Below are positions 8,657 to 27,019 of a stretch of 38,729 nucleotides of DNA, piece by piece. Position 1 is the first letter of the stretch, and each line of letters starts with the position of its first letter. The notes under the pieces were generated by a model. That model was not told the origin of the DNA, did no database searches, and worked only from the letters and a program-made list of their open reading frames with translations. The stretch is taken from contig CAMCUD010000039.1 of NCBI GenBank assembly GCA_945878865.1, positions 1 to 38,729 on the forward strand, read 5' to 3'. Origin of the DNA: Bifidobacterium breve. Its GTDB lineage: Bacteria > Actinomycetota > Thermoleophilia > Solirubrobacterales > Solirubrobacteraceae. Position numbers and translations under genes: made by a program.

Positions 8657-8674
8657 CGTCAGACCGACGGGCGC

Positions 8675-11983: not shown

Positions 11984-14900
11984 TGGACGGCTTCGATCTG
12001 CGCGCGCCGCTGACGAAGGGCGTCACCGTGCTCGAGGCGAGCGCGGGGACCGGCAAGACCTACACGATCGCGGGCCTGGCGACCCGGCACGTCGCCGAGG
12101 GGCTGCCCCTCGACCAGCTGCTCGTCGTGACCTTCACCCGGCTGGCAACCGGTGAGCTGCGCGAGCGTGTGCGCGAGCGGCTGGTGAGCGCCGAGGCGGC
12201 GCTGCGCACCGGGGTCATCGAGGACGGTGACGACCTCGCGGCGTTCCTCGCCTTGCAGGACCGTGAGGGGCGGCAGCGCAACCTCGCCAGCGCGGTCGCG
12301 TCGTTCGACAGCGCGACGATCACCACCACCCACGGCTTCTGCCTGGAGGCGCTGGGGTCGCTGGGCTTCACGGGGAACGTCGAGCGCGACTGCGCGTTCG
12401 TCGAGGACGTCTCCGACCTCATGGACGACGTCGTCAACGACCTGTTCGTCCGCCGCTTCGTCGGCGAGCGCCCGCGCTTTGCCCGCGGCGAGGCGATGGC
12501 CGTCGCGCGCGCGGCGATCGAGCACCCGAGCGCGCTCCTGGTTCCCGAGGCGGCCGCGCCGGACTCCGACGCCGCGATGCGGGTGCGGCTGGCGCATGCC
12601 GCGCGCGGCGAGCTGGAGCGACGCAAGCGCCTGGGGTCGTTGATGACGTTCGACGACGTCCTCACCCGGCTGGCCGACGCGCTCGACGGCCCGAGCGGCG
12701 ACCAGGTCTCAGCAAGGCTGCGCGAGCGCTACCGCGTGGTGCTCGTCGACGAGTTCCAGGACACCGACCCGGTGCAGTGGCAGATCATGCAGCGCGCGTT
12801 CGACCATCCGGACGGCACGCTCATCCTCATCGGCGACCCGAAGCAGGCGATCTACGCGTTCCGCGGCGCGGACGTCTACGCGTATCTCGACGCCGCGCGG
12901 TCGGCCTCCGCGCTCGGCACGCTCGACATGAACTGGCGCTCGGATCAGCGCCTGCTCGACGCCTACGACCTGCTGTTCGGCAACGCCAAGCTCGGCCACC
13001 CGGACATCGACTACCGCTCCACCCGCGCGACGCCGACCCACGAGGCGACGCGGCTCCACGGCGCGCCCGTCGACGCGCCGCTGCGCATCCGCGTCCTCGA
13101 CCGGCGCACCGTGCGCACCACGCCGAGCGGCTTCGCCTCGGCCCAACCGGCACGCGAGGCGATCGCGATCGACTGCGCCCGCGACATCGCCACCCTGCTG
13201 AACGCCGAGCCGACGATCACCCGCGGCACGCCGGGCGCCGAGCCGCGGACGGTGAAGCCCGGGGACATCGCGGTGCTCGTCCGCCGCAACCAGGACGCAG
13301 CACTCATCCAGGCCGAGCTACAGCACGTCGGGGTTCCTGCGGTCATCGCCGGCGCGGGCAGTGTGTTCGGCACCGACGCGGCCCGTGACTGGCTCGCGCT
13401 GCTCGAGGCGCTGGAGCGCCCGTCGTCGGTCGGCCGGGTCCACGCCGCGGCGCTGACCCCGTTCGTCGGGTGGTCGGCCTCGGCGGTGGCGGGCGCGGAC
13501 GACGCGGCTTGGGAGACCGTGCACGACCAGCTCCACGCGTGGGCGCAGGTGCTGCGCGACGACGGGGTCGCCGCGCTGCTGCAGGCGGTGACCGTGGAGT
13601 CCTCGCTGCCCGCGCGGGTGCTGGGCTTCGAAGGCGGCGAGCGCGTGCTGACCGACCTGCGCCACATCGGCCAGCTCCTGCACGCCTCCTCGATGGACGA
13701 GGGCCTGGGCGCCGCGGCGCTGACGCAGTGGCTGCGCCGCCGGATCCTCGACGCGAAGACCGAGGGCGACGAGGAACGCGCGCGCCGGCTGGAGTCCGAT
13801 TCGGCGGCGGTGCAGGTCCTGACGATCCACCGCTCGAAGGGGCTGGAGTATCCGATCGTCTACTGCCCCTTCCTGTGGGACCCGTCGTGGATCCCCGACG
13901 AGGCGCTGCCGGTCTTCTTCCACGACACGACCGGCGCCCGCACGCTCGACGTGGGGTTGTCGGGCGCCGCGTTCCGCGCGCATCAGGACGCCGAGCGCGC
14001 CGAGGAACGCGGCGAAGACCTGCGCCTCGCCTACGTCGCGCTGACCCGCGCCCGCCACCAGGCGGTGATCTGGTGGGCGGGGTCGTGGGACTCACGCAAC
14101 TCGCCGCTCTCCCGGCTGGTGTTCGCCCGCGCGGAGGACGGCACGGTGCCGGCGGAGGCGCCGCGCGAGATCCCGTCGGACGACGAGGCGTTCGCCCGCT
14201 TCTCGGCGCTAGGCGGCGAGGGGTGCATCAGCGTGGAGCGCGCGCCGGGCGCAGGGCTGCTGGCGGAGTGGTCGCCGCGGTCGGAGGACGCGTCCGACCT
14301 GCGCGCGGCGGAGTTCCGCCGGGGCATCGACCGGACGTGGCGACGCACGTCGTACAGCGACATCACCGCGCCGGCGCACGAGTCGTTCGGCTCGGAGCCG
14401 GAGGTCGACGAGGTGGAGGACGAGCGGTCGGTCGCCCCGGCCGCGCGCGCTGACGAGGCCGACGCGGCGCTGCGCGACATCCCCTCCCCCCTCGCCGACC
14501 TGCCGGGCGGGACACGGGTGGGCACGCTCGTGCACGACGTGTTCGAAGCAGTGGACTTCACCGCACCCGACCTGGGTGGCGCGATGGGCGTGGCGGTGCG
14601 CGAGGCGCAGGCGTACCGGCGGGTGGAGATCGGTGACCCGGACGTCCTCGCCGCCGCTTTGGCGGGCGTGGTTGAGACGCCGCTGCTCGATGGCCTCGCG
14701 CTGCGCGACATCGGGCCGGGCGACCGGCTGGACGAGCTGGGGTTCGAGCTGCCGCTTGAGGGCGCGGCGTCGCCGCGGGCGATCGGGGCGCTGTTGCGGT
14801 CGTTCCTGCCCTCCGATGACCCGCTGTTCGCGTACGCGGACCGGTTGGACGACCCGCTCCTGCGCCCCGTACTCCGCGGCTTCCTCACGGGCTCGATCGA

Positions 14901-15243
14901 TCTCGCGTTCCGCACGCCCGACGGCCGGTACGGCATCGTCGACTACAAGACGAACCGCCTCGGCGCGTTCGACGAGCCGCTGACGCTGTGGGACTACCGG
15001 CCGGCCGCGGTCGCCGAGGAGATGCGCCGCACGCACTACGCGCTGCAGGGGCTGCTCTACACGGTCGCGCTGCACCGGTACCTGCGCTGGCGGGTCCCCG
15101 GGTACTCCCCGGACCGTGACCTCGCCGGGTTCTTCTACCTGTTCGTCCGCGGGATGCCGGAGGCGGGAGTGTTCTCGTGGAAGGCGCCCGGGGAGCTCGT
15201 GGTGGCGCTGAGCGACCTGCTCGACGAGGGGACGGGCACGTGA
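11983..15243 (+). CDS. recB: Exodeoxyribonuclease V beta subunit RecB
   Basis: A 1086-aa RecB, the 3'-5' helicase and the sole nuclease of RecBCD. The helicase motifs are intact: Walker A EASAGTGKTYT with K25, motif Ia VVTFTRLAT, DEFQDTDPVQW (D256, E257), GDPKQAIYAFRGAD, TIHRSKGLEYPIVYCP (motif V) and LAYVALTRARHQ (motif VI). The C-terminal PD-(D/E)XK nuclease has H851 (GTLVHDVFE), D973 (GSIDLAF) and D987-Y-K989 (VDYKTN), so it should be active. An HYALQGLLYTVALHRYL block follows, also typical. ATG 11983 overlaps the recC stop by one base, and the stop overlaps the GTG start of recD. Confidence 0.96.
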   Translation: MDGFDLRAPLTKGVTVLEASAGTGKTYTIAGLATRHVAEGLPLDQLLVVTFTRLATGELRERVRERLVSAEAALRTGVIEDGDDLAAFLALQDREGRQRNLASAVASFDSATITTTHGFCLEALGSLGFTGNVERDCAFVEDVSDLMDDVVNDLFVRRFVGERPRFARGEAMAVARAAIEHPSALLVPEAAAPDSDAAMRVRLAHAARGELERRKRLGSLMTFDDVLTRLADALDGPSGDQVSARLRERYRVVLVDEFQDTDPVQWQIMQRAFDHPDGTLILIGDPKQAIYAFRGADVYAYLDAARSASALGTLDMNWRSDQRLLDAYDLLFGNAKLGHPDIDYRSTRATPTHEATRLHGAPVDAPLRIRVLDRRTVRTTPSGFASAQPAREAIAIDCARDIATLLNAEPTITRGTPGAEPRTVKPGDIAVLVRRNQDAALIQAELQHVGVPAVIAGAGSVFGTDAARDWLALLEALERPSSVGRVHAAALTPFVGWSASAVAGADDAAWETVHDQLHAWAQVLRDDGVAALLQAVTVESSLPARVLGFEGGERVLTDLRHIGQLLHASSMDEGLGAAALTQWLRRRILDAKTEGDEERARRLESDSAAVQVLTIHRSKGLEYPIVYCPFLWDPSWIPDEALPVFFHDTTGARTLDVGLSGAAFRAHQDAERAEERGEDLRLAYVALTRARHQAVIWWAGSWDSRNSPLSRLVFARAEDGTVPAEAPREIPSDDEAFARFSALGGEGCISVERAPGAGLLAEWSPRSEDASDLRAAEFRRGIDRTWRRTSYSDITAPAHESFGSEPEVDEVEDERSVAPAARADEADAALRDIPSPLADLPGGTRVGTLVHDVFEAVDFTAPDLGGAMGVAVREAQAYRRVEIGDPDVLAAALAGVVETPLLDGLALRDIGPGDRLDELGFELPLEGAASPRAIGALLRSFLPSDDPLFAYADRLDDPLLRPVLRGFLTGSIDLAFRTPDGRYGIVDYKTNRLGAFDEPLTLWDYRPAAVAEEMRRTHYALQGLLYTVALHRYLRWRVPGYSPDRDLAGFFYLFVRGMPEAGVFSWKAPGELVVALSDLLDEGTGT

Positions 15244-16997
15244 CCGAAGACCCGTTCGACTGGCAGCGCGCGGTGGCCGTCGTCGACGGGCTGCTCGCGG
15301 AGTTCAACGCGGCCGACGTCCTGGCGACCTCCGACGTCCATGCCGCGCTGCGGTTCGGCGCGCTGGTCGGCGAGTCGTCTGAGGAGGTCCTGCTGGCCGC
15401 CGCGCTGGCGGTCCGCGCGCCACGGTTTGGCCACGTGTTCGCGGATCTGTCGTCGGTGGTCTCGACGATCACGGTGGAGCCGGAGTCGGGGGTTGACGTC
15501 GCGGCGCTGCCGTGGCCTTCGGCCGACGCCTGGATCGCCGCGGTGGCCGCAAGTCCCCTGGTCGCGGAGGGCGGGCCGTTGCGGCTGGTCGGCTCGGCGC
15601 TGTACCTCGAGCGCTACTGGGTGCAGGAGGGCGAACTGGCCGCGGACCTGGGCGCGCGGAATATGCCGGCGCCATCGGTCGACGAGGCGGTGCTCACAGA
15701 CGGCCTGGCGCGGCTGTTTACCGACCCGGTGCAGGCGCGCGCCGGGGAGGTCGCGGTGCGCCGCCAGCTCTCGGTGGTCGCGGGCGGCCCGGGGACGGGC
15801 AAGACGACGACGGTCGCGCGGATCGCGGCGCTGCTGATCGAGCAGGGCGCCGAGTTGATCGCGCTGGCGGCACCGACGGGCAAGGCGGCGGCGCGACTGG
15901 AGGAGGCGGTGCATGCCGAGGCGGCTGGTCTGGACGCTTCCGCGGAAGCGCGCGCCGCGGTGGCGGGGCTGCGCGCGCAGACGCTGCACCGGCTGTTGGG
16001 CTGGCGCCCGGACTCGCGCTCGCGCTTCCGTCACGGCCGCGGGAACCGGCTCCCCCACGACGTAGTCATCGTCGACGAGACGTCGATGGTGTCGCTCTCG
16101 ATGATGGCGTCGCTGGTAGCGGCGGTACGACCGGGGTCGCGGCTCGTGCTCGTCGGCGACCCGGGCCAGCTGACGTCGGTGGAGGCCGGCGCGGTGCTCG
16201 GGGACATCGTGGCGAGCCCGGCGCTGGCCGACGGCGTGGTGGTGCTCGAGCGCGTGCACCGGTTCGCGGGCGGGATCGCGGAGCTGGCGACGGCGATCGC
16301 GGCAGGCGACGAGGACACGGTCATCGACCTGCTGCTCGCGGGGCTCGACGACGTGGTGTGGGTCGACGCCGATGCTGCGCTGGCGTCGGTCGACGAGCTC
16401 GACGAGGTGCGTGAGCTCGCGGTGGCGTCAGCGGCCCACGTGGTCGCGAGCGCGCAGGCCGGCGACGCGGCGCGCGCGCTGTCTGCGCTGGAGAGCTTCC
16501 GCCTGCTGTGCGCGCACCGTCGCGGCCCGCACGGCGCGACGACCTGGATGTGGGAGCTCGAGCGCTGGCTCGCCGAAGGCGTCCCGGGCTTCGACCCGGG
16601 CTCGGAGTGGTACGTCGGCCGGCCGCTCCTGGTGACCGAGAACGACTACGGGCTCAAGCTCTATAACGGCGACACGGGCGTGGTCATCGCGGTCGGAGAC
16701 GACCGGGTGGAGGCGGCGTTCGAGCGCGGCGGCGAGCCCGTGCGGTTCAGCCCGACGCGGCTGGGCGCGGTCGACACGGTCTACGCGATGACGATCCATA
16801 AGTCGCAGGGATCGCAGTTCGGGACGGTGGCGGTGGTACTGCCCGACGCGGCGTCGGCGATGCTGACGCGGGAGCTGCTGTACACGGCGGTGACGCGGGC
16901 GCGGGAGCGGGTGGTGTTGGTCGGGGATGAGGCGGCGGTGCGCGCGGCGGTGGCTCGGTCGGCGGGGCGCGCGAGTGGGCTCGCAGCACGGCTGTAG
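15240..16997 (+). CDS. recD: Exodeoxyribonuclease V alpha subunit RecD
   Basis: A 585-aa RecD, the 5'-3' helicase motor of RecBCD. The N-terminal 150 residues are the adapter region that docks to RecC. Then come Walker A VVAGGPGTGKTTT (K188), APTGKAAARLEEAVH (motif Ia), VIVDETSMVSLSMM (D279, E280), LVGDPGQLTSVEAGAVLGDI (motif III), YAMTIHKSQGSQFGTVAVVLP (motif V) and LLYTAVTRARERVVLVG (motif VI). All helicase motifs look functional. The start is GTG 15240, inside the recB stop (GTGA overlap), so the three subunits are likely made in a fixed ratio. Confidence 0.95.
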   Translation: MTEDPFDWQRAVAVVDGLLAEFNAADVLATSDVHAALRFGALVGESSEEVLLAAALAVRAPRFGHVFADLSSVVSTITVEPESGVDVAALPWPSADAWIAAVAASPLVAEGGPLRLVGSALYLERYWVQEGELAADLGARNMPAPSVDEAVLTDGLARLFTDPVQARAGEVAVRRQLSVVAGGPGTGKTTTVARIAALLIEQGAELIALAAPTGKAAARLEEAVHAEAAGLDASAEARAAVAGLRAQTLHRLLGWRPDSRSRFRHGRGNRLPHDVVIVDETSMVSLSMMASLVAAVRPGSRLVLVGDPGQLTSVEAGAVLGDIVASPALADGVVVLERVHRFAGGIAELATAIAAGDEDTVIDLLLAGLDDVVWVDADAALASVDELDEVRELAVASAAHVVASAQAGDAARALSALESFRLLCAHRRGPHGATTWMWELERWLAEGVPGFDPGSEWYVGRPLLVTENDYGLKLYNGDTGVVIAVGDDRVEAAFERGGEPVRFSPTRLGAVDTVYAMTIHKSQGSQFGTVAVVLPDAASAMLTRELLYTAVTRARERVVLVGDEAAVRAAVARSAGRASGLAARL

Positions 16998-16999
16998 CT

Positions 17000-17035
17000 G
17001 GGGCGAGTTTCGCCGCCACCTCCCCTAGAAGGGGC
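17000..17035 (+). promoter_or_regulatory. Conserved upstream element, copy 2
   Basis: GGGGCGAGTTTCG (17000-17012), 10 unconserved nt, then CCCTAGAAGGGG (17023-17034), C, and ATG at 17036. The first 13 nt are identical to the copy at 8057-8069. The distances from CGAG to CCCTA (19 nt) and from CCCTA to the ATG (13 nt) are the same in both copies. Confidence 0.55.
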
Positions 17036-17254
17036 ATGAACACCTCTTCACGCTTCCGCCCCTCCGAGATTCTGGTCCTCCTAGCGCATGCCGGGTTCCG
17101 CCGCATCGGCGCAGCGATCGGATTCGTGCTCGTCGTGCTGTGGCTGTGGTCCGCGGTCACCGGCGATGGGCTGGGGGATCGCTTCATGTTCCGCGGCAAG
17201 CACGGGAGCTTCGGCGTGTCGAGCCACTCGTCGTCACACCACTTCTTGCCGTAG
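17036..17254 (+). CDS. Small single-pass membrane protein, unknown
   Basis: A 72-aa protein with a basic N-terminus (MNTSSRFRPSEI), one likely transmembrane helix (about residues 24-41, IGAAIGFVLVVLWLWSAV) and a C-terminal tail rich in Ser, His and Gly (HGSFGVSSHSSSHHFLP). No family is recognised. Support for coding comes from the conserved element directly upstream, shared with another small membrane-protein gene at 8093, and from a coherent membrane topology. It lies 38 nt after recD and just before the hipBA operator region. Confidence 0.55.
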   Translation: MNTSSRFRPSEILVLLAHAGFRRIGAAIGFVLVVLWLWSAVTGDGLGDRFMFRGKHGSFGVSSHSSSHHFLP

Positions 17255-17265
17255 CGGGCCAGAAA

Positions 17266-17281
17266 TATCCCGATCGGGACA
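17266..17281 (+). promoter_or_regulatory. HipB-type operator O1
   Basis: TATCCCGATCGGGACA, an almost perfect inverted repeat with TATCC/GGACA half-sites around CGATCG. It is the first of three copies (next at 17315 and 17365) spaced 49 and 50 bp. E. coli HipB binds a TATCC-N8-GGATA site. The half-sites here are alike but the spacer is 6 nt. Confidence 0.65.
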
Positions 17282-17314
17282 GCACACACCTCGACAGCTC
17301 CCCGGCGCGGACAA

Positions 17315-17330
17315 TGTCCCGACCGGGATA
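17315..17330 (+). promoter_or_regulatory. HipB-type operator O2
   Basis: TGTCCCGACCGGGATA, the same inverted repeat as O1 read in the other orientation, with one change in the centre. It ends 4 nt before the TTGCAC box at 17335-17340, so a bound repressor would block RNA polymerase. Confidence 0.65.
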
Positions 17331-17334
17331 GAAG

Positions 17335-17365
17335 TTGCACGATCTGTCGACCGGTACCCTACGAT
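17335..17365 (+). promoter_or_regulatory. Candidate hipBA promoter
   Basis: TTGCAC (17335-17340) and TACGAT (17360-17365) form a -35/-10 pair with a longish 19-nt spacer. A TACCCT at 17355-17360 is an alternative -10 with a short spacer. The pair is bracketed by operators O2 and O3, which supports its being the regulated promoter. Confidence 0.4.
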
Positions 17366-17380
17366 GTACCGATCGGGACA
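17365..17380 (+). promoter_or_regulatory. HipB-type operator O3
   Basis: TGTACCGATCGGGACA, the third copy of the inverted repeat. It begins on the last base of the TACGAT box and ends directly before the first HipB-like codons, where a transcription start would fall. Confidence 0.6.
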
Positions 17381-17593
17381 ACGGTCAACACCGCGAAGGC
17401 ACTCGGCCACGCCATCCGCCAGGCCCGCAAGGCGCGCAACCTCACGCTGGAGGACGCAGCCCTCGGGGCCGGCGTCGGCATCCGCTTCCTCAGCGAGCTC
17501 GAGCGCGGCAAGGAGACTGCCCGCCTGGCGGAGACGCTGCGGGTGGTCGCCTCCTTGGGCCTCGAGCTGACGATCGAGGATCCGCTTGGCTGA
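17381..17593 (+). CDS. hipB: HipB-like antitoxin (Xre-family HTH), start codon unclear
   Basis: A helix-turn-helix protein of about 70 residues: ALGHAIRQARKARNLTLEDA, then GVGIRFLSELERGKET, RLAETLRVVASLGLELTIEDP. This is the Xre/HipB fold with the typical LGLELTIED ending. It is the expected DNA-binding antitoxin that neutralises HipA and represses the operon through O1-O3. In this frame there is no ATG, GTG, TTG or CTG between the stop at 17252-17254 and the HTH. The candidates are ACG 17381, GTC 17384 or ATC 17372. The ATG at 17364 is in another frame. I placed the start at ACG 17381, where one T-to-C change would turn ATG into ACG. The end overlaps hipA by 8 nt. Confidence 0.75.
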   Translation, partial: TVNTAKALGHAIRQARKARNLTLEDAALGAGVGIRFLSELERGKETARLAETLRVVASLGLELTIEDPLG

Positions 17594-18854
17594 GCGCACC
17601 CTCGACGTGTGGTGCTTCGACCACCGGGCCGGCACGCTCACCGAAACCGCCACCGGGCTGCGGTTCGCCTACACCGACGAGTGGCTGGCCGCGGGGCGCC
17701 CCGCCCTGTCCTTCTCGCTCCCACGCTCAGGCGCGTTCGATGACGCCGCCGCCGGCGCCTTCTTCGGCGGCTTGCTCCCCGAAGGGACTCCGCGGCTCAC
17801 GCTCGCCCGCCAGCTCGGCATCTCGCCCGAGAACGACTTCAGTCTGCTCGACGCGCTCGCCGGCGACACCGCTGGAGCGATCGTCATCACGCCTCCCGAA
17901 GACACCCCACCGACGACGTCGGACGACGTGGTCTGGCTCGACGACGATCAGCTCATCCGCGAGCTGGACGACCTCCCGATCCGCCCCTTCCATGCCGACG
18001 AAGACGGCGAATACCGGCTCTCGCTCGCGGGCGCTCAAGACAAGCTCCCGGTGGTGCTCTCCGACGACGGGCGAATCGGGCTCACCCACGGCCGCACACC
18101 GTCCACTCACATCATCAAGACCCCCATCCCGACGCTCGACGCGACGGTCGCCAACGAGGCGATGTGCCTGGACATCGGCCGACGTCTGGGCATCGCGACG
18201 GTGGAGGCCGAGCCGCGCCGAACAGGGGACCGCGAGTTCCTCCTGGTCACCCGCTACGACCGCGAGCGTGCCGGCGACACGGTGACCCGGCTACACCAGG
18301 AGGACTTCTGCCAGGCGCTCGGGATCCCGACAGCCCGCAAGTACCAAGCCGAGGGTGGACCGGATCTCGCGGCCTGCTTCGGGCTGATCCGGGATGCGGC
18401 CGCGGTCCCGGGGCGCGACGCCGTGGCGCTGCTCGACGCGATCGCCCTCAGCTTCCTCGTCGGCAACCACGATGCGCACGGGAAGAACTACTCGCTGTTG
18501 TACCGGCCCGGGATGACCAAGCCGGTGCTTGCGCCCGCGTACGACGTCGTGAGCACGTTCGTCTACCGAGGGGCGCGACGGATGTCGCGCAAGCTCGCGA
18601 TGTCGATCGGGACCGAGTACCGGCCGGACTACGTACGCACCCGACACCTTGAGGCGATGCTGGCCGACGCTGGGCTGGCGAGCGCGGCGGCGAAGCGGCG
18701 GCTGCGGCGGATCGCGGGGGATGCCCCTGGCGCGGCGAGCGCGGCACGCGACGATCTCCGGGATCGTGGGTGGGATGCACCGGTACTCGACCGAATCGTC
18801 GAACTGGTGGATCAGCGCTCGCGGTACTTGATGGAAATCGTCGACGGAAACTGA
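17586..18854 (+). CDS. hipA: HipA-family serine/threonine kinase toxin
   Basis: A 422-aa HipA-fold kinase, close in length to E. coli HipA (440 aa), which phosphorylates a tRNA synthetase and causes growth arrest. N-terminal subdomain: WLAAGRPALSFSLP and FFGGLLPEG. The Gly-rich loop with the autophosphorylated Ser is SLAGAQDKLPV (S146). ATP-binding Lys lies in STHIIKTP. The catalytic loop is GNHDAHGKNYSLL (D296), and the Mg-binding Asp is in APAYDVVST (D320). All key residues are kept, so it should be active. The start is TTG 17586 inside the hipB end (8-nt overlap), which ties its translation to hipB. The target in this organism is not known. Confidence 0.92.
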   Translation: MAERTLDVWCFDHRAGTLTETATGLRFAYTDEWLAAGRPALSFSLPRSGAFDDAAAGAFFGGLLPEGTPRLTLARQLGISPENDFSLLDALAGDTAGAIVITPPEDTPPTTSDDVVWLDDDQLIRELDDLPIRPFHADEDGEYRLSLAGAQDKLPVVLSDDGRIGLTHGRTPSTHIIKTPIPTLDATVANEAMCLDIGRRLGIATVEAEPRRTGDREFLLVTRYDRERAGDTVTRLHQEDFCQALGIPTARKYQAEGGPDLAACFGLIRDAAAVPGRDAVALLDAIALSFLVGNHDAHGKNYSLLYRPGMTKPVLAPAYDVVSTFVYRGARRMSRKLAMSIGTEYRPDYVRTRHLEAMLADAGLASAAAKRRLRRIAGDAPGAASAARDDLRDRGWDAPVLDRIVELVDQRSRYLMEIVDGN

Positions 18855-18967
18855 TCATGGCGCGCTCGACGCGCGTCCCAGCCGGTGCAACTCCTGCGCG
18901 TCACTCACTGCCGCAGGGCGGGAAGCCACAGCACCACGAAACTCGTGGAAGGTAAACCTCTGAGGCC

Positions 18968-18986
18968 CTGGACGCGAACCGTCCAG
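18968..18986 (+). terminator. Stem-loop after hipA
   Basis: CTGGACG / CGTCCAG, a perfect 7-bp stem with a 5-nt loop (CGAAC), 114 nt past hipA. No U run follows. It could stop hipBA transcripts or be part of a structured leader for the nuclease gene. Confidence 0.4.
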
Positions 18987-18994
18987 ATAGGCAC

Positions 18995-19033
18995 GACACC
19001 GAGGCGTCGGTGTCACGAGAACCCCGACGCCTC
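18995..19033 (+). repeat. Overlapping, mutually exclusive hairpins
   Basis: Hairpin A: GACACCGA (18995-19002) pairs with TCGGTGTC (19007-19014) around GGCG. Hairpin B: GAGGCGTCGG (19001-19010) pairs with CCGACGCCTC (19024-19033) around 13 nt. They share bases 19001-19010, so only one can form. This is the layout of an attenuator or switch. No ligand-binding core was recognised. Confidence 0.5.
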
Positions 19034-19126
19034 CTCTAGCACGTACGCGCACTTGGCCACCCGAAGCGAAGAACTGTGCAGACGCCAAGCTGAATGCGCC
19101 GCACATTGTCTAGTTGTAAAGCGGCC

Positions 19127-19155
19127 TTGCGCTAGGACTTGGATTCAGGTAGATC
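19127..19155 (+). promoter_or_regulatory. Possible promoter before the nuclease gene
   Basis: TTGCGC (19127-19132), a 17-nt spacer, and TAGATC (19150-19155). Spacing is ideal but the boxes match consensus only in part. The predicted start of transcription is about 20 nt before the TTG start at 19182. Confidence 0.3.
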
Positions 19156-19181
19156 GTTTCTCCTCACGAACGCTTCGCCCG

Positions 19182-20258
19182 TTGCCCCGCAGCCGTCTAT
19201 CACTCATCGACGCGACCAAGAAGATAGGCCGCGAGGACCGCCTGACCGAGATCCTGGCCACGGTCATTGAGAATTGCCCCGAGTTCACCGGTGCTGTGTT
19301 TCAGTACTTCGGCCTGTCGGTGGGACCGCGATACCGAGCGAGCACCCAGCTGCTCTTGGCGGACAGAAGCCGGATCGACATGCACGTCGAGAGTCTCACC
19401 GACCACGGGGTCGTCGTTTCAGAGATCTGGTCAGAGCACAAGCTCGACGCTGCCTTCGGTCAACAGCAGCGAGAGCGGTATCGCGACGGACTCGCCGATC
19501 GACCCGTGCCAGGACGGCTGATCTTCGTGGTTCGCCCAGACGCGGTTCCGGGCGCACCCGACGAGTGGACATACCTGACCTGGCAGGAACTCGGCGAGAT
19601 CGCCGAGGATGCCGGGAGACGATGGGCCGGCAAGGCCTGGCGCCAGGACGCATGCCGTCACGATGCCCCAGCCGGCTGGCGATTTCTGTGGGAGCTGCTC
19701 TGGGTACTGGAGGAGGAAGAGGAACTCGCCATGGGACAAGCCCTCGACCGCGACGATGTCGCCGCCTTCGCGATGTTCCACGACGTTGTCCTAAGGGTCA
19801 CGGCCTTGCTCGAGCGAGGCGCGCATCTCGCCGGGCCACTTGTTCCTGCAGGCGAGATCGAGGACGACGTCGCCACGTTCTGGCAACAGTTCGCGCCCCC
19901 GCGGAACTCTTGGCTCGCTCGTCTCCGTGGCCTCGAGGCGACAGCCGAGCTGATTGCCAGCCCTCGCGATCACTGGTCCGCCGAACGGCACGAGGGCCCG
20001 GTGTTCGGGGCGGGAGTCTCATTCGACGCAGCCCTGCATCCCGCACTGAGCGGACATAGGGACTGGGCGGCGACGCTTGCCGAGCAGGGATTCAGCTGCG
20101 AGCTATGGGGCGGCTGGGTCCGCGTGTACAGAACGAGGCCCATCGCGGACGTGGTGGCGTCCGGAGACACCATCGCGCAGCAGGCGGCATGCCTCGGCAC
20201 ATGGGCGCGTGACGCCGTGGGTACCCTCATGGAGCTGGGCCCAGGAGACCTCTCGTGA
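19182..20258 (+). CDS. PD-(D/E)XK nuclease-family protein, unknown system
   Basis: A 358-aa protein. The N-terminal 110 residues look like a PD-(D/E)XK nuclease: EDRLTEILATVIENCPEF, then RIDMHVES with D66, and EIWSEHKLDAAFGQQQRERYRD, where E85-H-K87 forms the E-x-K pair and the trailing Gln-rich helix fits motif III. Such folds cut DNA or RNA, and many occur in phage defence. The rest (110-358) is helical with WRFLWELLWVLEEEEELAMGQALDRDD and shows no known domain. TTG 19182 is chosen because the nuclease fold begins right after it. Upstream codons are not protein-like. The GTGA overlap with the 118-aa gene shows translational coupling. It sits between hipBA and hsdM. Confidence 0.65.
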   Translation: MPRSRLSLIDATKKIGREDRLTEILATVIENCPEFTGAVFQYFGLSVGPRYRASTQLLLADRSRIDMHVESLTDHGVVVSEIWSEHKLDAAFGQQQRERYRDGLADRPVPGRLIFVVRPDAVPGAPDEWTYLTWQELGEIAEDAGRRWAGKAWRQDACRHDAPAGWRFLWELLWVLEEEEELAMGQALDRDDVAAFAMFHDVVLRVTALLERGAHLAGPLVPAGEIEDDVATFWQQFAPPRNSWLARLRGLEATAELIASPRDHWSAERHEGPVFGAGVSFDAALHPALSGHRDWAATLAEQGFSCELWGGWVRVYRTRPIADVVASGDTIAQQAACLGTWARDAVGTLMELGPGDLS

Positions 20259-20611
20259 AGGCGGTCAGCAGACGCGCCACACAGGCGCCACGTGTCACGG
20301 CCGCCCGCCGCCGCGAGATATTGCGTCTGCAGAATGCGGTGAGGAATGCGGTCAACGTCAGCCGAGGTCGCGAGCGGAAACTCGGTGTGGATCCGGAGCG
20401 GCTGCGCCAGGCAATGACGCTGTATCGGATCGACGTCGGCCGGATCTCCTGCCGTGCACAACGCCTCCCCGTCGGATCTGATCTCCTCGCCGACTACAAG
20501 CTCTGGCAGGACGGCGAGTTGCTGTTCCGGCTCAAGCTGGTCCGGTGGGAGAACGATGTGGACGCGCGCTGGCATGTGAAGCGGCACCCCGAGGCGACGT
20601 GGTGGCGATAG
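20255..20611 (+). CDS. 118-aa protein coupled to the nuclease, unknown
   Basis: A basic 118-aa protein that I do not recognise. The N-terminal half is Arg-rich and helical (RRREILRLQNAVRNAVNVSRGRERKLG), which may bind nucleic acid. The C-terminal half is more beta-like and aromatic (LLADYKLWQDGELLFRLKLVRWENDVDARWHVKRHP...WW). The start is GTG 20255, overlapping the nuclease stop (GTGA), with GGAGA about 8 nt upstream as a ribosome site. The tight coupling suggests a working pair, such as a nuclease with its regulator, inhibitor or nucleic-acid adaptor. Direction of that relation is inference only. Confidence 0.6.
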   Translation: MKAVSRRATQAPRVTAARRREILRLQNAVRNAVNVSRGRERKLGVDPERLRQAMTLYRIDVGRISCRAQRLPVGSDLLADYKLWQDGELLFRLKLVRWENDVDARWHVKRHPEATWWR

Positions 20612-20801
20612 GCAAGCACGTGTCGTGTCTCAACTTTCCCAATTCGGAGGACACCGAGGCGGCTTCCGCTGCGACAAGGCCGCTCGCAAGGTGCAGCGTG
20701 CCAATTCACTGCAGCGGAGACGATCCCGCCGTTGCACAACGTGCGCGCCGAAGGAATCACCGATAGAGCTGGCGGGCGCCGTGTCTCGCACGCCAGAATT
20801 C

Positions 20802-22385
20802 ATGCCTCCTATGGCCCACGAGAACGACACCCCAGCCGAGAAGATCCTCTTCGACGCCGCGAATGCTCTGCGCGGCAGCGTCGAGTCTGCCGAGTACAAG
20901 CACCTGGTCCTCGGCCTGGTCTTCCTCAAATACGTCTCTGACAACTTCGACGCACGGCGGCAGGCTGTCGAGGAGCTGTCTCGCGACTCTGAGAGCGAGT
21001 GGTATGTCGAGGACGACCAGGATCGCGCTGACCTGCTCGAAGACCGCGACGCCTACGAAGTCGCGAACACGTTCTGGGTGCCGACCGAAGCCCGGTGGCC
21101 CGCGCTCTTGGCGCTCGGGTCGCAGTCGGACATCGGGGTGCAACTCGACCGGGCGCTGGATCTCATCGAACGTGAGAACCCGGCGCTCAAGGACGTGCTG
21201 CCGCGCGTGTACGCGCGGGCGGCGCTGTCACCGGAGACCCTCGGCAAGCTCGTCTCCGAGATCGCCAAGATCGGATTCGGCTCGGACCCCGAGAAGGCGC
21301 GTGACGTCCTGGGACGCGTCTACGAGTACTTCATCAAGGAGTTCGCCCGCTCAGAGGGACACCGCGGTGGCGAGTTCTACACCCCCGCGAACGTCGTCCG
21401 GCTACTCGTCGAACTGCTCCAGCCCGATCACGGCCGAATCTTCGACCCTGCGTGCGGGTCGTGCGGGATGTTCATCCAGTCGGCGAGGTTCTTGCGTGCA
21501 CACGCCGGCACGGGCGACGAGCTCTCCGTCTTCGGGCAGGAGCTCAATCAGGCGACCTGGCGGATCGGTCGCATGAATCTTGCCATCCATGGCCTCTCCG
21601 GCAACGTCGCGCTGACCCAGGGTGGCTCGCTGCTGAACGACGCGCACCCGACGCTCAAGGCGGACTTCGTCATCGCGAACCCGCCGTTCAATCAGAAGAA
21701 GTGGGGCGCAGCGCAGGTCGCCGAGGACTCTCGGTGGAAGTGGGGGATCCCGCCCGACGGCAACGCCAACTACGCCTGGATTCAGCACTTCGCTTCGCAC
21801 CTTGCGCCGGACGGCCGCGCCGGCTTCGTCCTCGCCAACGGGTCATTGACCTCTACTACCTCAGGCGAAGGAGCGATCCGCGAGGCGCTGATCCGCGACG
21901 ACCTCGTCGACTGCATCGTTGCCCTGCCTGGGCAGCTGTTCTACACGACGGGCATCCCGGTATGCCTGTGGTTCCTCGACCGCAACAAGGCGTCGGCGAA
22001 CGAACGCGACCGGCGCGGCGAGACGCTGTTCATCGACGCCCGCTCCATGGGTCACAAGATCAGCCGGACGCAGATCGAACTGTCCGATGAGGAAATCGGA
22101 CGGGTCACGAGTGTGTACCGAGCGTGGCGCGGTCAGACGGGGGCCGGGGAGTACTCGGACGAGCCGGGCTTCTGCCGCTCCGCCGACCTCGCTCAAATCG
22201 AGCAGGCAGGGTTCACGTTGTCACCGGGCCGGTACGTCGGTGCACCCGAAGACGAGGAGGACGCAGTCGCTTTCGAGGAGCGCATGGCCGAGCTCATTGA
22301 GTCGCTGGAAGACGAGATGGCTGAGAACCAGCGGCTTGCCGGCGCGGTCAGGGTTGCACTTGAGCAGGTGGGGCGTGCCATCTGA
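20802..22385 (+). CDS. hsdM: Type I restriction-modification DNA methyltransferase HsdM
   Basis: A 527-aa N6-adenine methyltransferase subunit. The N-terminal helical domain starts AEKILFDAANALRGSVESAEYKHLVLGLVFLKYVSD. Then come the GEFYTPANVVRLLVELL block, the AdoMet motif DPACGSCGMF (from D215; the usual form is GSGGM, so one Gly is Cys here) and the catalytic NPPF (from N293). A C-terminal coiled region (FEERMAELIESLEDEMAENQRL) likely contacts HsdS. With HsdS it methylates the recognition site, and with HsdR it also restricts. ATG 20802 is preferred, with ATG 20811 or GTG 20781 possible. About 190 nt separate it from the previous gene, so it likely has its own promoter. Its end overlaps hsdS. 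Confidence 0.95.
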   Translation: MPPMAHENDTPAEKILFDAANALRGSVESAEYKHLVLGLVFLKYVSDNFDARRQAVEELSRDSESEWYVEDDQDRADLLEDRDAYEVANTFWVPTEARWPALLALGSQSDIGVQLDRALDLIERENPALKDVLPRVYARAALSPETLGKLVSEIAKIGFGSDPEKARDVLGRVYEYFIKEFARSEGHRGGEFYTPANVVRLLVELLQPDHGRIFDPACGSCGMFIQSARFLRAHAGTGDELSVFGQELNQATWRIGRMNLAIHGLSGNVALTQGGSLLNDAHPTLKADFVIANPPFNQKKWGAAQVAEDSRWKWGIPPDGNANYAWIQHFASHLAPDGRAGFVLANGSLTSTTSGEGAIREALIRDDLVDCIVALPGQLFYTTGIPVCLWFLDRNKASANERDRRGETLFIDARSMGHKISRTQIELSDEEIGRVTSVYRAWRGQTGAGEYSDEPGFCRSADLAQIEQAGFTLSPGRYVGAPEDEEDAVAFEERMAELIESLEDEMAENQRLAGAVRVALEQVGRAI

Positions 22386-23670
22386 CACAAGGACCGGGGG
22401 ACGGCAGGCAACCACAGCGATTGATCCCGGGCGCTTCGGACTATCCATCGGCGATCCTGGGACGGCATTGCCGCACCGATGGACCTGGCGCAAGCTGACG
22501 GACCTCGCCAGGCTCGAAACCGGTCACACGCCGAGTCGACGTCGCCCGGACTGGTGGGGTGGAGACATCCCGTGGATAGGGATCAAGGATGCCACCGGCA
22601 ATCACGGGCGGCGGATTGAGTCCACGCTTCAGTTCACCAACGAGGAAGGAATAGCCAACTCGTCAGCCCGGGTCTTGCCAACCGACACGGTATGCCTGTC
22701 GCGCACGGCGTCGGTTGGATACGTGGTGGTCATGGGCTGTCCAATGGCGACTAGTCAAGACTTCGTGAACTGGGTCTGCGATCCCACTGTCCTGGACTGG
22801 CGATACCTGCGGTGGGTGTTGATGGCGGAGACAGCATCGCTGCAAAGGTGGGCCCACGGCACAACGCATCAGACGATCTACTTTCCAGAAGTCAAAGCCT
22901 TCCACCTGGCGGCGCCCTCAGTCGAGGAGCAACGGACAATCGCTGACGTGCTCGGGGCTCTCGATGACAAGATCGAGAGCAACCGTCGCGTCGCGGCAGC
23001 TGCAGAGGCACTGCTGGAGCATGCGCTAGTCGGGGCGCCGAGTGGACAAACCGAGCCTTTGTCTGCTGTCGCAGAGTTTCGGAACGGGGGCGCGATCACC
23101 AAGCTCGCCAACGGCGCCGGCCCTCCGATCATCCGCATCAAAGAGATGCGCTCGGGAATCGGCGGCGCGACGCTCCGGACCGATGTTCCGATCCGCGCGG
23201 AGCATCACGTTCAGCCCGGCGACTTGCTGTTCTCGTGGTCGGGAACACTGCTCACGGTCCGGTGGGACGGCCCCGCAGCGTTACTGAACCAGCACGTCTT
23301 CCGCGTGGACCCGCGCCCTGGCTTGCAACGGTGGATGGTCGAAGCGTGGGTCAAGCAGCACTTGCCCTCGTTTCGTGCGATCGCGGAGGACAAGGCGACC
23401 ACCATGGGGCACATCCAGCGTCGGCATCTCGACGAGGCGTCGGTGGTCGTCCCCAACGACGACGAACTCTCCCGACTCCATGCGCAATGGACACCTGTAG
23501 ATCAGCTGCGAGTCGGCCTGCTCGCTGAAGCAAGGAGCCTTGTGGCGATCCGCGACGGGCTGCTACCCAAGCTCGTGTCGGGCGCGATTCGCGTTCCGGT
23601 GTCTAACGATCCGGAAGAGGGGCTAGGCATCGCGGCCTCGCAACTCGAAGAGGAGCCTGCAGCGTCGTGA
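22375..23670 (+). CDS. hsdS: Type I restriction-modification specificity subunit HsdS
   Basis: A 431-aa subunit that reads the bipartite DNA target. It has two target-recognition domains: the first from LPHRWTWRKLTDLARLETGHTPSRRRPDWWGGDIPWIGIKD, the second from TEPLSAVAEFRNGGAITKLANGAG. Each is followed by a conserved helical spacer (APSVEEQRTIADVLGALDDKIESNRR and VDQLRVGLLAEARSLVAIRDGLLPKLVSG). These repeats set the gap in the target site. The start is GTG 22375, overlapping hsdM by 11 nt. It is visibly less GC-rich than the core genes, as is common for hsdS through exchange between strains. The target sequence itself cannot be predicted. Confidence 0.94.
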   Translation: MPSDTRTGGRQATTAIDPGRFGLSIGDPGTALPHRWTWRKLTDLARLETGHTPSRRRPDWWGGDIPWIGIKDATGNHGRRIESTLQFTNEEGIANSSARVLPTDTVCLSRTASVGYVVVMGCPMATSQDFVNWVCDPTVLDWRYLRWVLMAETASLQRWAHGTTHQTIYFPEVKAFHLAAPSVEEQRTIADVLGALDDKIESNRRVAAAAEALLEHALVGAPSGQTEPLSAVAEFRNGGAITKLANGAGPPIIRIKEMRSGIGGATLRTDVPIRAEHHVQPGDLLFSWSGTLLTVRWDGPAALLNQHVFRVDPRPGLQRWMVEAWVKQHLPSFRAIAEDKATTMGHIQRRHLDEASVVVPNDDELSRLHAQWTPVDQLRVGLLAEARSLVAIRDGLLPKLVSGAIRVPVSNDPEEGLGIAASQLEEEPAAS

Positions 23671-26600
23671 AGATCGACGAGATGGGGCTGGCGGAGAAGC
23701 CGGCGATTGAGTGGCTCGTCGGTGCTGGCTGGGCTGGTCGGAGCGGGCTATCGCTGGTCCCAGGTGTCTCCGCTGAGCGGCAGATCCCCAGCGATGTGGT
23801 CCTGCATGAGACCTTGACGGCGGCTGTGGCAAGGCTCAACCCGGTGTTGCCCGCCGCCGCGGTGACGCGTGCGGTCGAGATCGCGATGACGGGGACGAGC
23901 CCAATCCGCATCCTCGATCATCAGGGCTTTCACGAGTTGCTGCTCGCGGGCGTGCCGGTGTCGTGGTTGGACGGCGAGCGGGGTGAGCAGTCCACGCGTG
24001 CGCGACTGATCGACTGGGCCGATCCGGCGAACAACCGCTTTGAGGTCGTCGATCAGCTGACGATCGTCGAGGGCGGAAACAACCGCCGGCCTGACCTTCT
24101 CCTGTACGTCAACGGGCTCCCCCTCGGGCAGATCGAGCTGAAAAATCCAGCGGACGAGCAGGCGACCGCGATGGCGGCGGTCAACCAGGTCAAGCACTAC
24201 GCGCAGACGATTCCCGGGCTCTACCGCTACGTCGAGATCATCGGGGTATCCGACCTCATCAGCGCGCGCGTCGGGACCGTGTCGACGCCAGCGGAGCACT
24301 TCGCTGAGTGGAAGACGATGGACCCGGAGGAGATGAAGGGCGTCCCGCCGCTACGGGTGATGATCGAGCAGGCGTTCTCGCCCGCAGCATTCCTTGACCT
24401 CATCCGCAACTTCGTGCTGTTCGAGACCGACGGCGCGATGACGTGGAAGGTCATGGCCAAGTACCACCAGGTCGACGCGGTCAATCGAGCGGTGGAGTCC
24501 ACGTGGGCGGCGATGGAGGACCGCACACGGCGGGGTGGCGTCGTGTGGCACACCCAGGGCGCCGGCAAGTCGTACTCGATGGTGTTCTACGTCACCAAGC
24601 TGCGGCGCGACCCGCGGTTCGCCAACCCGACGGTGGTCCTCGTCACCGATACCAACGATCTCGACAACCTGTTGTCGGAGACCTTCGAGCGTCAGGCGCA
24701 CCTCGCTCCGGCGGTCGCGCGGGCGGAGCGCATCCAGCCGAAGGCCGGCGATTCGCGCAAGAGCCTGTACGAGCTGCTCGACGTTCCCGCGGACGGGATC
24801 GTCTTCACGACCATCCAGAAGTTCGGGCGTGGCAAAGACGAGGGCCCGATTCCGGTGTTGTCAGAACGGGAGAACGTCGTCGTGATCGCTGACGAGGCGC
24901 ACCGCTCGCAGTACGAGGACCTTGCCCGCAACCTCATGCGCGCGCTTCCGAACGCGACGCGCCTTGGCTTTACCGGGACGCCGATCGAGACCGCCGATCG
25001 GTCGACGAAGACCGCGTTCGGCGACTACATCAGCGTCTACCGAATGCGTCGGGCGCAGGAGGACGAGGCCACCGTCCCGATCTACTACGAGTCGCGGCAG
25101 GTCCCCGTCAACGCGGATCGCAGCGAGATCGACCAGGTGCAAGCGATCCTCGACCAGGAGACCGAAGAGGGACAGACCGAGCTGTCGAGCGAGTTCGCGC
25201 GCATGGACGCCATCATCGCCGCACCCGATCGCCTGGACACCGTGGCCGAGGACCTCGTCGCGCACTTCACCGACCGCTGCCGAACGTTCCCCGGCAAAGC
25301 GATGCTCGTCGCCTACAGCCGCCGCGCGGCGGCGGAGTATGCCGACCGGCTCAAGCGCCTCCTCGGTGACGAGGCGGTGGATGCCGTGATGGGCGCAACC
25401 GCCACCGATCCCCGGCCGATAAGCGACTACCGCAAGAACAAGCAGCAGCTCAAGCAGATCGAGAAGGACTTCAAGGACCCCGACCACCCGCTGCGGGTCG
25501 TGGTCGTCAAGAACATGTGGCTGACCGGATTCGACGCGCCCGTGCTTCACACGCTGTACGTCGACAAGCCCATGAGGGACCACGGACTGCTGCAGGCGAT
25601 CGCGCGAGTCAACCGCGTGTTCGAGGGCAAACCCGGCGGGCTCGTCGTCGACTACATCGGCATCGGCGACGACCTGCGCGCCGGCCTGACCGCGTACGCC
25701 AAGGACGATGTGGACGACGTCGTTATCCCGTTGGAGGTCGCGCAGGCGAAACTCCGCGAGAAGCACGAGGTGATGTGCGACCTCCTGCACGACATCACAT
25801 GGGTGCCGGATCCGGGCGCGACCGCCGGCGAACGCGCCACGGTGGTGCACGCTGCGGCCGAGGAGGCTGTCGCGCGATATGTCCTGGATGACGAGCAAGC
25901 CGGGTTGCTGCTCGACGAGCACGCTCAGTACGCGCGGTGGTTCCGGTTGGTCTCTCCGAACGAGCCGACCGTCGAGCAGCGGTTCGATCATGACTTCTTC
26001 GCGCTGGTCGTCAAGGTGCTGCGAGCGGCGCTTGCCGATGCCGGCGAGCGCGACGGCAGCGGGCCGAGCAGGGAGGCGCGTCTGGCCGTCGAGCAGTTCT
26101 TCTCGGAGGGGCTCGCCGGCGGAGAGATCGTGGACGTGTTCGAGATTGCCGGAGAGTCGCGGCCGGAGATCAGCGTCCTATCCGACGAGTTCCTGGACGA
26201 CATCAAGACGAAGCTCACGCGGCCGGAGACCCAGGTCGCCCTGCTGCGCAAGCTGCTGAACGGGGAGATCCGAGGTCGCTTTGCGTCCAACCGGACGCAA
26301 TCCAAGCGCTTCAGCGACGAACTGCAGGCAGTGCTCGATCGCTACCACGCGAAGCAGCTCACCTCGGCTGACGTCGTCGCCGAGCTGGTCAAACTCGCCA
26401 AGAAGTTGCGCGAGCAGCGCGATCGCAACGAGCAGCTCGGCCTGTCGCCGCAGGAACTCGCGTTCTATGACGTCCTGGCGTCCAAGGGCGAGGAGTGGGT
26501 GGATGATCCGCGGCTGAAGGGCATCGCCGCCGAGATCGTCCAGAGCTTGACCCGTCCGGACGATCCGGCGCTTGGGGTGGACTGGACCGAGCGCAGCAAC

Positions 26601-26762
26601 CTGGAGGCGAAGGTGCGGCTGAGGATCAAGCAGATCCTCAGGCGCAACAAGAAGCTACTGCCCACCAACGGCGGCGGCTTCGACGGGATGGTTGAGCGGG
26701 TCTTCGAGCAGGCCAGGGCCCTGTATCAGCGCTGGCCCGAGGTCGAAGGCGAATCCTCCTAG
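23667..26762 (+). CDS. hsdR: Type I restriction endonuclease HsdR
   Basis: A 1031-aa motor/nuclease subunit. The N-terminal nuclease has RRPDLLLYVNGLPLGQIELKNP with D143 and E157-L-K159, the PD-(D/E)XK set. The superfamily-2 translocase follows: VVWHTQGAGKSYSM (K301), VVIADEAHRSQY (DEAH at 409-412), GFTGTPI, and in the second RecA lobe MLVAYSRRAAAEYADRL, VVVKNMWLTGFDAPVLHTLYVDKPM and LLQAIARVNRVF. A helical C-terminus (KKLREQRDRNEQLGLSPQELAFYDVLAS) binds the methylase core. All motifs look intact, so restriction should be active. The start is GTG 23667 within the hsdS stop. Confidence 0.96.
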   Translation: MKIDEMGLAEKPAIEWLVGAGWAGRSGLSLVPGVSAERQIPSDVVLHETLTAAVARLNPVLPAAAVTRAVEIAMTGTSPIRILDHQGFHELLLAGVPVSWLDGERGEQSTRARLIDWADPANNRFEVVDQLTIVEGGNNRRPDLLLYVNGLPLGQIELKNPADEQATAMAAVNQVKHYAQTIPGLYRYVEIIGVSDLISARVGTVSTPAEHFAEWKTMDPEEMKGVPPLRVMIEQAFSPAAFLDLIRNFVLFETDGAMTWKVMAKYHQVDAVNRAVESTWAAMEDRTRRGGVVWHTQGAGKSYSMVFYVTKLRRDPRFANPTVVLVTDTNDLDNLLSETFERQAHLAPAVARAERIQPKAGDSRKSLYELLDVPADGIVFTTIQKFGRGKDEGPIPVLSERENVVVIADEAHRSQYEDLARNLMRALPNATRLGFTGTPIETADRSTKTAFGDYISVYRMRRAQEDEATVPIYYESRQVPVNADRSEIDQVQAILDQETEEGQTELSSEFARMDAIIAAPDRLDTVAEDLVAHFTDRCRTFPGKAMLVAYSRRAAAEYADRLKRLLGDEAVDAVMGATATDPRPISDYRKNKQQLKQIEKDFKDPDHPLRVVVVKNMWLTGFDAPVLHTLYVDKPMRDHGLLQAIARVNRVFEGKPGGLVVDYIGIGDDLRAGLTAYAKDDVDDVVIPLEVAQAKLREKHEVMCDLLHDITWVPDPGATAGERATVVHAAAEEAVARYVLDDEQAGLLLDEHAQYARWFRLVSPNEPTVEQRFDHDFFALVVKVLRAALADAGERDGSGPSREARLAVEQFFSEGLAGGEIVDVFEIAGESRPEISVLSDEFLDDIKTKLTRPETQVALLRKLLNGEIRGRFASNRTQSKRFSDELQAVLDRYHAKQLTSADVVAELVKLAKKLREQRDRNEQLGLSPQELAFYDVLASKGEEWVDDPRLKGIAAEIVQSLTRPDDPALGVDWTERSNLEAKVRLRIKQILRRNKKLLPTNGGGFDGMVERVFEQARALYQRWPEVEGESS

Positions 26763-26783
26763 GTGTCGCATATGCCTCCGGAT

Positions 26784-26804
26784 CCAGACCGCAGGTTCTG
26801 GTTT
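26784..26804 (+). terminator. Hairpin after hsdR
   Basis: CCAGACC-GCA-GGTTCTGG, a 7-bp stem with one bulged T, followed by TTT, 21 nt past the hsdR stop. It fits a weak intrinsic terminator for the hsd operon. Confidence 0.45.
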
Positions 26805-26990
26805 CAGCTTGCTGACCAGCTCCGCGGGACTATCGGCAGGAATCAGTGGCTACCCGCCCTGACGAAGTCCGCCGCCGATGCTCCTGTGAAGCGCCGGCCG
26901 AGCGTGATGTTGCCGCGTCGTCTGCGTGTCACGGCAAGCGAATCCACGCGCGGCCCCGAAGTCTGGCCGTGCCCCGCACCCAAGCCCCAG

Positions 26991-27019
26991 TTGAGGTGCC
27001 GGCAGCATGGCTTCATGCT
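26991..27019 (+). promoter_or_regulatory. Candidate vapBC promoter
   Basis: TTGAGG (26991-26996), 17-nt spacer, CATGCT (27014-27019). The -10-like box is the right arm of the first inverted repeat. Transcription would begin at or near the ATG at 27026. The stretch before it, from 26805, shows nothing else that I could support. Confidence 0.4.

What the first reader, a model, noticed from the sequence alone, without database searches (positions are those of the whole stretch)
19182..20611. Uncharacterised nuclease plus small-protein pair inside a defence island
A PD-(D/E)XK protein (D66, E85-x-K87) with an unknown 250-residue helical C-terminus is coupled by a GTGA overlap to an unknown basic 118-aa protein. 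The pair lies between hipBA and a type I R-M operon. Tight coupling, an intact nuclease core and the location fit a two-gene defence module or an accessory of the hsd system. I do not recognise either full-length family.
Basis: partly seen in the sequence, partly recalled or inferred. Interest (0 to 1): 0.7.

Follow-up and report, generated by a model that had tools for sequence, protein, structure and literature searches.

The report
An actinobacterium carries, at a chromosomal spot where a close relative keeps other anti-virus genes, an unnamed DNA-cutting-type enzyme whose scattered relatives also tend to sit beside defence genes; the small gene attached to it was found nowhere else searched, so the enzyme is probably a stand-alone defence nuclease and not half of a conserved pair.

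Summary
A 358-aa PD-(D/E)XK protein (TTG 19182 to 20258; E23, D66, E85-x-K87, Q96) overlaps by GTGA a basic 118-aa gene (20255-20611), between hipBA and an intact hsdMSR operon. Both read as coding; neither matches a Pfam, NCBIfam or PADLOC family. The nuclease belongs to a rare family conserved over its full length in Thermoleophilia: 6 of 399 genomes of the class matched; five clear homologues in four genomes were read. Where the core is present the catalytic set is identical. Neighbours of homologues include DarTG, PsyrTA and a type I hsdM. In a same-genus genome the same site (recBCD on one side, FitAB on the other) holds a type IV restriction enzyme plus an HNH protein, so this is a defence hotspot. 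The 'two-gene module' and 'hsd accessory' readings fail: no homologue of the small gene near any relative or in about 400 genomes, and four hsdMSR operons (65-78% HsdM identity) lack the pair. Best reading: a stand-alone, horizontally spread defence nuclease with a lineage-specific basic partner. Substrate, trigger and phage protection are untested. It is a new family of a known kind, of moderate interest.

The parts
19182..20258 (+). PD-(D/E)XK nuclease gene (358 aa, TTG start)
   Evidence: open frame, codon bias, full-length homologues
19248..19250 (+). E23 codon (LTE motif, helix 1), identical in all homologues that keep the N-terminus
   Evidence: alignment
19377..19379 (+). D66 codon (catalytic Asp)
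   Evidence: aligned Asp in every homologue with a core; on strand 2 of the model (low confidence)
19434..19442 (+). E85-x-K87 codons (catalytic ExK)
   Evidence: E-x-K in every homologue with a core; strand 3 of the model
19467..19469 (+). Q96 codon (invariant Gln after the ExK, in the helix following the core strands)
   Evidence: alignment
19989..20234 (+). C-terminal beta-alpha-beta-beta-alpha segment (about residues 270-351), conserved in the family, no known family match
   Evidence: alignments; model secondary structure (low confidence)
20255..20611 (+). 118-aa basic protein of unknown family (pI 11.5), starts in the GTGA overlap
   Evidence: no homologues found
20255..20258 (+). GTGA stop/start overlap coupling the two genes
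   Evidence: sequence
17255..17593 (+). hipB-like HTH open frame (neighbour; no ATG/GTG/TTG start in frame)
   Evidence: named by eye, not by a family match
17586..18854 (+). hipA (neighbour)
   Evidence: PF07804 E 1e-47, PF13657 E 6e-22
20811..22385 (+). hsdM (neighbour; ATG 20811 preferred to GTG 20625)
   Evidence: PF02384 E 1e-99; 20625-20810 lacks codon bias
22386..23670 (+). hsdS (neighbour, intact reading frame; start not fixed)
   Evidence: translation; not tested against a family library
23667..26762 (+). hsdR (neighbour)
   Evidence: PADLOC REase_I E 5e-218
17213..27013 (.). variable island (9.8 kb, about 65-66% G+C against 70-75% outside) between recBCD and FitAB; replaced by another 5.1-kb defence cassette in a same-genus genome
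   Evidence: synteny; composition

Best explanation
The first gene encodes a stand-alone, horizontally spread defence nuclease. A metal-dependent PD-(D/E)XK core (E23, D66, E85, K87, Q96) cuts DNA, and the long C-terminal part (helical middle plus a terminal beta-alpha-beta-beta-alpha unit) recognises the target or the signal that licenses cutting. The 118-aa basic protein, made by translational coupling, is a lineage-specific helper, most likely a nucleic-acid-binding accessory or regulator of the nuclease, and not a conserved second half of the system. Shown: both frames look coding; the catalytic set is conserved wherever the core exists; the C-terminus is conserved; the site is a variable defence hotspot; several homologues lie beside known defence or toxin-antitoxin genes. 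Inferred: that it is an active DNase, that it protects against phages or plasmids, and what each protein binds.
For: Full-length homologues with identical catalytic residues and a shared C-terminus. PD-(D/E)XK-like order of secondary structure with D66 on strand 2 and E85/K87 on strand 3 (low confidence). Weak core-only similarity of one homologue to PDDEXK_4 (E 0.014) and to the defence candidate PDC-S26 (E 4e-5). Neighbours of homologues: DarT/DarG and a MazF-like gene in G082, PsyrA/PsyrT directly upstream in Gaiella, type I hsdM in Conexibacter. The window genome has one N6-methylase gene in 4.96 Mb and it starts 0.55 kb from the nuclease; Conexibacter has two, one of them about 1.3 kb away. 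The same site in a same-genus genome holds a type IV restriction enzyme (E 7e-270) and an HNH protein. Island G+C is several points lower than its flanks.
Against: No function is shown. Two homologues carry apparent frameshifts (draft assemblies) and one has lost its core, so the family is often dispensable or decaying. One intact homologue (G131 C27) sits beside an RHH gene and an ABC transporter, not clearly defence. The structure model is low confidence (pLDDT 43.6). Defence association rests on six loci including the window, without a formal control set.
Confidence: 0.55

Rival explanations
1. A toxin-antitoxin-like pair: the nuclease is the toxin and the 118-aa protein its immunity partner, kept together by translational coupling.
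For: GTGA overlap; opposite charges (pI 5.0 and 11.5); toxin-antitoxin genes are frequent neighbours of the family.
Against: Homologous nucleases stand without the small gene, including the two with intact reading frames (L015, L016), so the nuclease does not in general need it; the putative antitoxin would come second and be strongly basic, unlike most type II antitoxins (established knowledge).
Confidence: 0.15
2. An accessory or regulator of the type I R-M operon: the pair, or the small protein alone in the manner of RptR upstream of hsd operons, controls or assists hsdMSR.
For: Position directly upstream of hsdM in the same direction; RptR (PMC12255303) shows that small regulators lie upstream of type I systems; in Conexibacter a nuclease homologue also lies upstream of an hsdM.
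Against: Four hsdMSR operons with 65-78% HsdM identity lack both genes; about 200 bp of non-coding DNA separates the pair from hsdM; other nuclease homologues have no hsd neighbour; RptR is 79 aa and helical, while the small protein is modelled as two helices plus four strands.
Confidence: 0.12
3. A decaying passenger: a gene once mobile with the island, no longer under selection for defence, with the small ORF fortuitous.
For: Weaker codon bias than neighbouring genes; frameshifted or deleted homologues; small ORF is an orphan.
Against: The window copy is intact with every catalytic residue; both frames keep codon bias; close overlap of the two genes.
Confidence: 0.13
4. A DNA-repair or housekeeping nuclease unrelated to defence.
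For: PD-(D/E)XK folds are common in repair (established knowledge); recBCD lies next to the site.
Against: Rare and patchy (6 of 399 class genomes including its own; 1 further among 396 of the phylum), absent from the two same-genus genomes searched, in a variable island.
Confidence: 0.05

Closest known systems
PDDEXK_4 (Pfam PF14281)
   Same: PD-(D/E)XK nuclease core; the Conexibacter homologue matches the core region weakly (E 0.014, below cut-off)
   Different: the window protein itself gives no match; the conserved C-terminal domain lies outside the model
PDC-S26 (PADLOC phage-defence candidate, PDLC04977)
   Same: weak match to the core of the Conexibacter homologue (E 4e-5)
   Different: window protein gives no match; only about 100 of 400 positions align in the homologue
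RptR (repressor upstream of type I R-M systems, PMC12255303)
   Same: small gene placed upstream of hsdM in a defence island
   Different: RptR is 79 aa and helical and directly associated with the hsd operon; here 118 aa, alpha-alpha-beta4 in the model, coupled to a nuclease gene and absent from related hsd operons

Membership tests
PD-(D/E)XK nuclease superfamily | conserved D and E-x-K on consecutive strands | tested here: met
   D66, E85, K87 conserved in every homologue with a core; strand placement from a low-confidence model
PD-(D/E)XK nuclease superfamily | alpha-beta-beta-beta-alpha-beta core fold | tested here: inconclusive
   order of elements fits but pLDDT 43.6 and no fold match
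PD-(D/E)XK nuclease superfamily | metal-dependent nuclease activity | not testable with these tools
   needs an assay
PDDEXK_4 (PF14281) | score over Pfam's gathering cut-off | tested here: not met
   window protein: no match; best homologue 15.8 bits against 22.3
PDC-S26 | match to the PADLOC model over most of its length | tested here: not met
   window: none; Conexibacter homologue: core only
type II toxin-antitoxin module | conserved two-gene pairing | tested here: not met
   small gene absent beside homologues
type II toxin-antitoxin module | toxicity neutralised by partner | not testable with these tools
   needs an expression test
type I R-M accessory | co-occurrence with related hsdMSR operons | tested here: not met
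   absent from four operons with 65-78% HsdM identity and from a fifth at about 46%
anti-phage defence gene | location among defence genes at a variable site | tested here: met
   no formal control set for the neighbour counts
anti-phage defence gene | protection against phage | not testable with these tools
   needs phage challenge

The most novel reading that the evidence does not exclude
A new family of stand-alone defence nucleases whose conserved C-terminal domain is the sensor, and which acquires interchangeable small nucleic-acid-binding partners (a 118-aa basic protein here, a ribbon-helix-helix protein directly upstream in G131) that set its target or its restraint.
Probability: 0.2. 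Interest if true: 0.6.

Novelty: new member of a known kind. Interest (0 to 1): 0.4.

Why it matters
If confirmed it adds an unlisted nuclease family to the defence repertoire of Thermoleophilia, a class whose defence systems are hardly described (one paper in the library searched held the three search terms), and it marks the recBCD-FitAB interval as a defence hotspot in this genus that can be mined for further systems.

Tried and rejected
Small-protein hit in G201 (L005, 49% over 57 aa): out of frame with the gene that carries the codon bias there (third-position G+C 0.95); rejected. TAL-effector hits of the profile in PDB sequences: sums of many sub-threshold repeats in the helical region; rejected. 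Fold searches: small protein, no Foldseek hit under E 0.001 in PDB or BFVD and best VIA Z 4.5, inconclusive; nuclease model too poor to search meaningfully. No relatives of the nuclease in plasmids, phages or viral contigs; none of the small protein in plasmids or viral contigs (phage records not searched with it). Genome-contig scans gave only the Conexibacter and Gaiella copies. No promoter or terminator consensus around the pair. A 30-nt similarity between the two intergenic gaps (18977-19006 and 20632-20661) is not significant (7% of shuffles reach it).

Full report
Observation. The nuclease frame is open from 18885 to 20258. E23, D66, E85, K87 and Q96 are present. The second gene (20255-20611, GTGA overlap, 118 aa, pI 11.5) has codon bias like the first. 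hipBA lies upstream and an intact hsdMSR operon downstream, each separated from the pair by non-coding DNA (about 330 and 200 bp).

Family. Neither protein matches NCBIfam or PADLOC at E 1 or Pfam at E 3, apart from one chance-level row for the small protein; PHROGs gives only a chance-level row for the nuclease. tblastn found two diverged relatives in the same taxonomic family; a profile made from these found more in the class: 6 of 399 genomes, the window's included. A second profile found 1 further among 396 genomes of the phylum; only the best few candidates per genome were scored in these searches, so the counts are lower bounds. The clear homologues are in Conexibacter arvalis (L015/L020, intact), G131 (two copies: L016 intact, L019 split over two frames), G082 (L018, split over two frames) and a Gaiella MAG (L014/L021, nuclease core missing and frame broken). 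Two further genomes gave only distant matches (L017, L024). The alignment shows a shared LTE helix, T-Q before the core, D, E-x-K, Q and a C-terminal segment with a recurring G-F / G-W / R / Q pattern. One homologue shows weak core similarity to PDDEXK_4 and to the defence candidate PDC-S26; the window protein does not reach either. The AlphaFold model is low confidence (pLDDT 43.6) but orders its elements as a PD-(D/E)XK core with D66 and E85/K87 on consecutive strands, followed by a helical middle and a beta-alpha-beta-beta-alpha end.

Setting. In G140, a complete genome of the same genus, window 8657-17212 (recC, recB, recD; 85% identity) and 27014 onward (FitAB) are collinear, but the 9.8 kb between them in the window is replaced by 5.1 kb with a PLD-helicase type IV restriction enzyme (PADLOC E 7e-270), an HNH protein and a 331-aa protein without matches. 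The island is about 65-66% G+C against 70-75% outside. Around the homologues: DarT and DarG (PADLOC E 2e-56 and 2e-131) on the opposite strand about 50 bp past the nuclease stop, and a MazF-like gene upstream, in G082; PsyrA and PsyrT directly upstream in Gaiella; hsdM about 1.3 kb away in Conexibacter with an HTH-like open frame between, which I read as a Xre/RES toxin-antitoxin remnant from the sequence, not from a family match; a UPF0150-like gene upstream, which I read as HicB with a HicA-like frame, and glmM/glmS around, in G131 C30 (glmM, glmS and HicA named by eye); an RHH/NikA-like gene directly upstream and an ABC transporter in G131 C27. N6-methylase genes number one in the window genome and two in Conexibacter, and in each one lies beside the nuclease. 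Under random placement that would be expected at about 0.1-0.3% per genome within 3 kb (my arithmetic); the test was chosen after seeing the loci, so it is indicative only.

The small gene. No homologue lies in the 14-18 kb around any homologous nuclease, in 232 genomes of the order, in 398 of the class, in plasmids or in viral contigs; the one apparent hit is out of frame. A single-sequence model gives two helices and a four-stranded sheet (pLDDT 63.7) with no significant fold match. So the pair is not a conserved module. HsdM homologues at 65-78% identity occur in four other genomes of the family with hsdR downstream and without either gene, so the pair is not a fixed accessory of this hsd system.

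Interpretation. The simplest reading that fits all of this is a stand-alone defence nuclease moving among defence hotspots, with a lineage-specific second gene. What is shown is sequence conservation and location; nuclease activity, target and protection are inference. Against it stand the decayed homologues and the lack of any experiment. RptR (PMC12255303) is the nearest published case found of a small gene upstream of a type I system, and differs in size, fold and association.

Noticed in passing
17265-17281, 17314-17330, 17364-17380: Three near-palindromic 17-nt repeats (CCCGATCGGG core) spaced 49-50 nt apart upstream of hipB; possibly HipB operators.
   Followed up: partly
17255-17593: The hipB-like frame has no ATG, GTG or TTG start in frame; an ATG at about 17362 lies in another frame. 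Unusual start, or a frameshift.
   Followed up: partly
18995-19006 and 20650-20661: The 12-mer GACACCGAGGCG occurs twice in the window, once in each non-coding gap flanking the pair; the surrounding similarity is not significant.
   Followed up: yes
L034:12052-17180: Same site in genome G140 holds a PLD-helicase-DUF3427 type IV restriction enzyme, an HNH protein and an unknown 331-aa protein.
   Followed up: partly
L021:7995-8841: Gaiella nuclease homologue has lost its catalytic core and is frame-broken, directly after a PsyrA gene.
   Followed up: yes
L017:3283-4473, L017:7140-8489 and L024:7495-8991: More distant PD-(D/E)XK-like proteins without family matches; two of them lie in one locus (L017).
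   Followed up: partly
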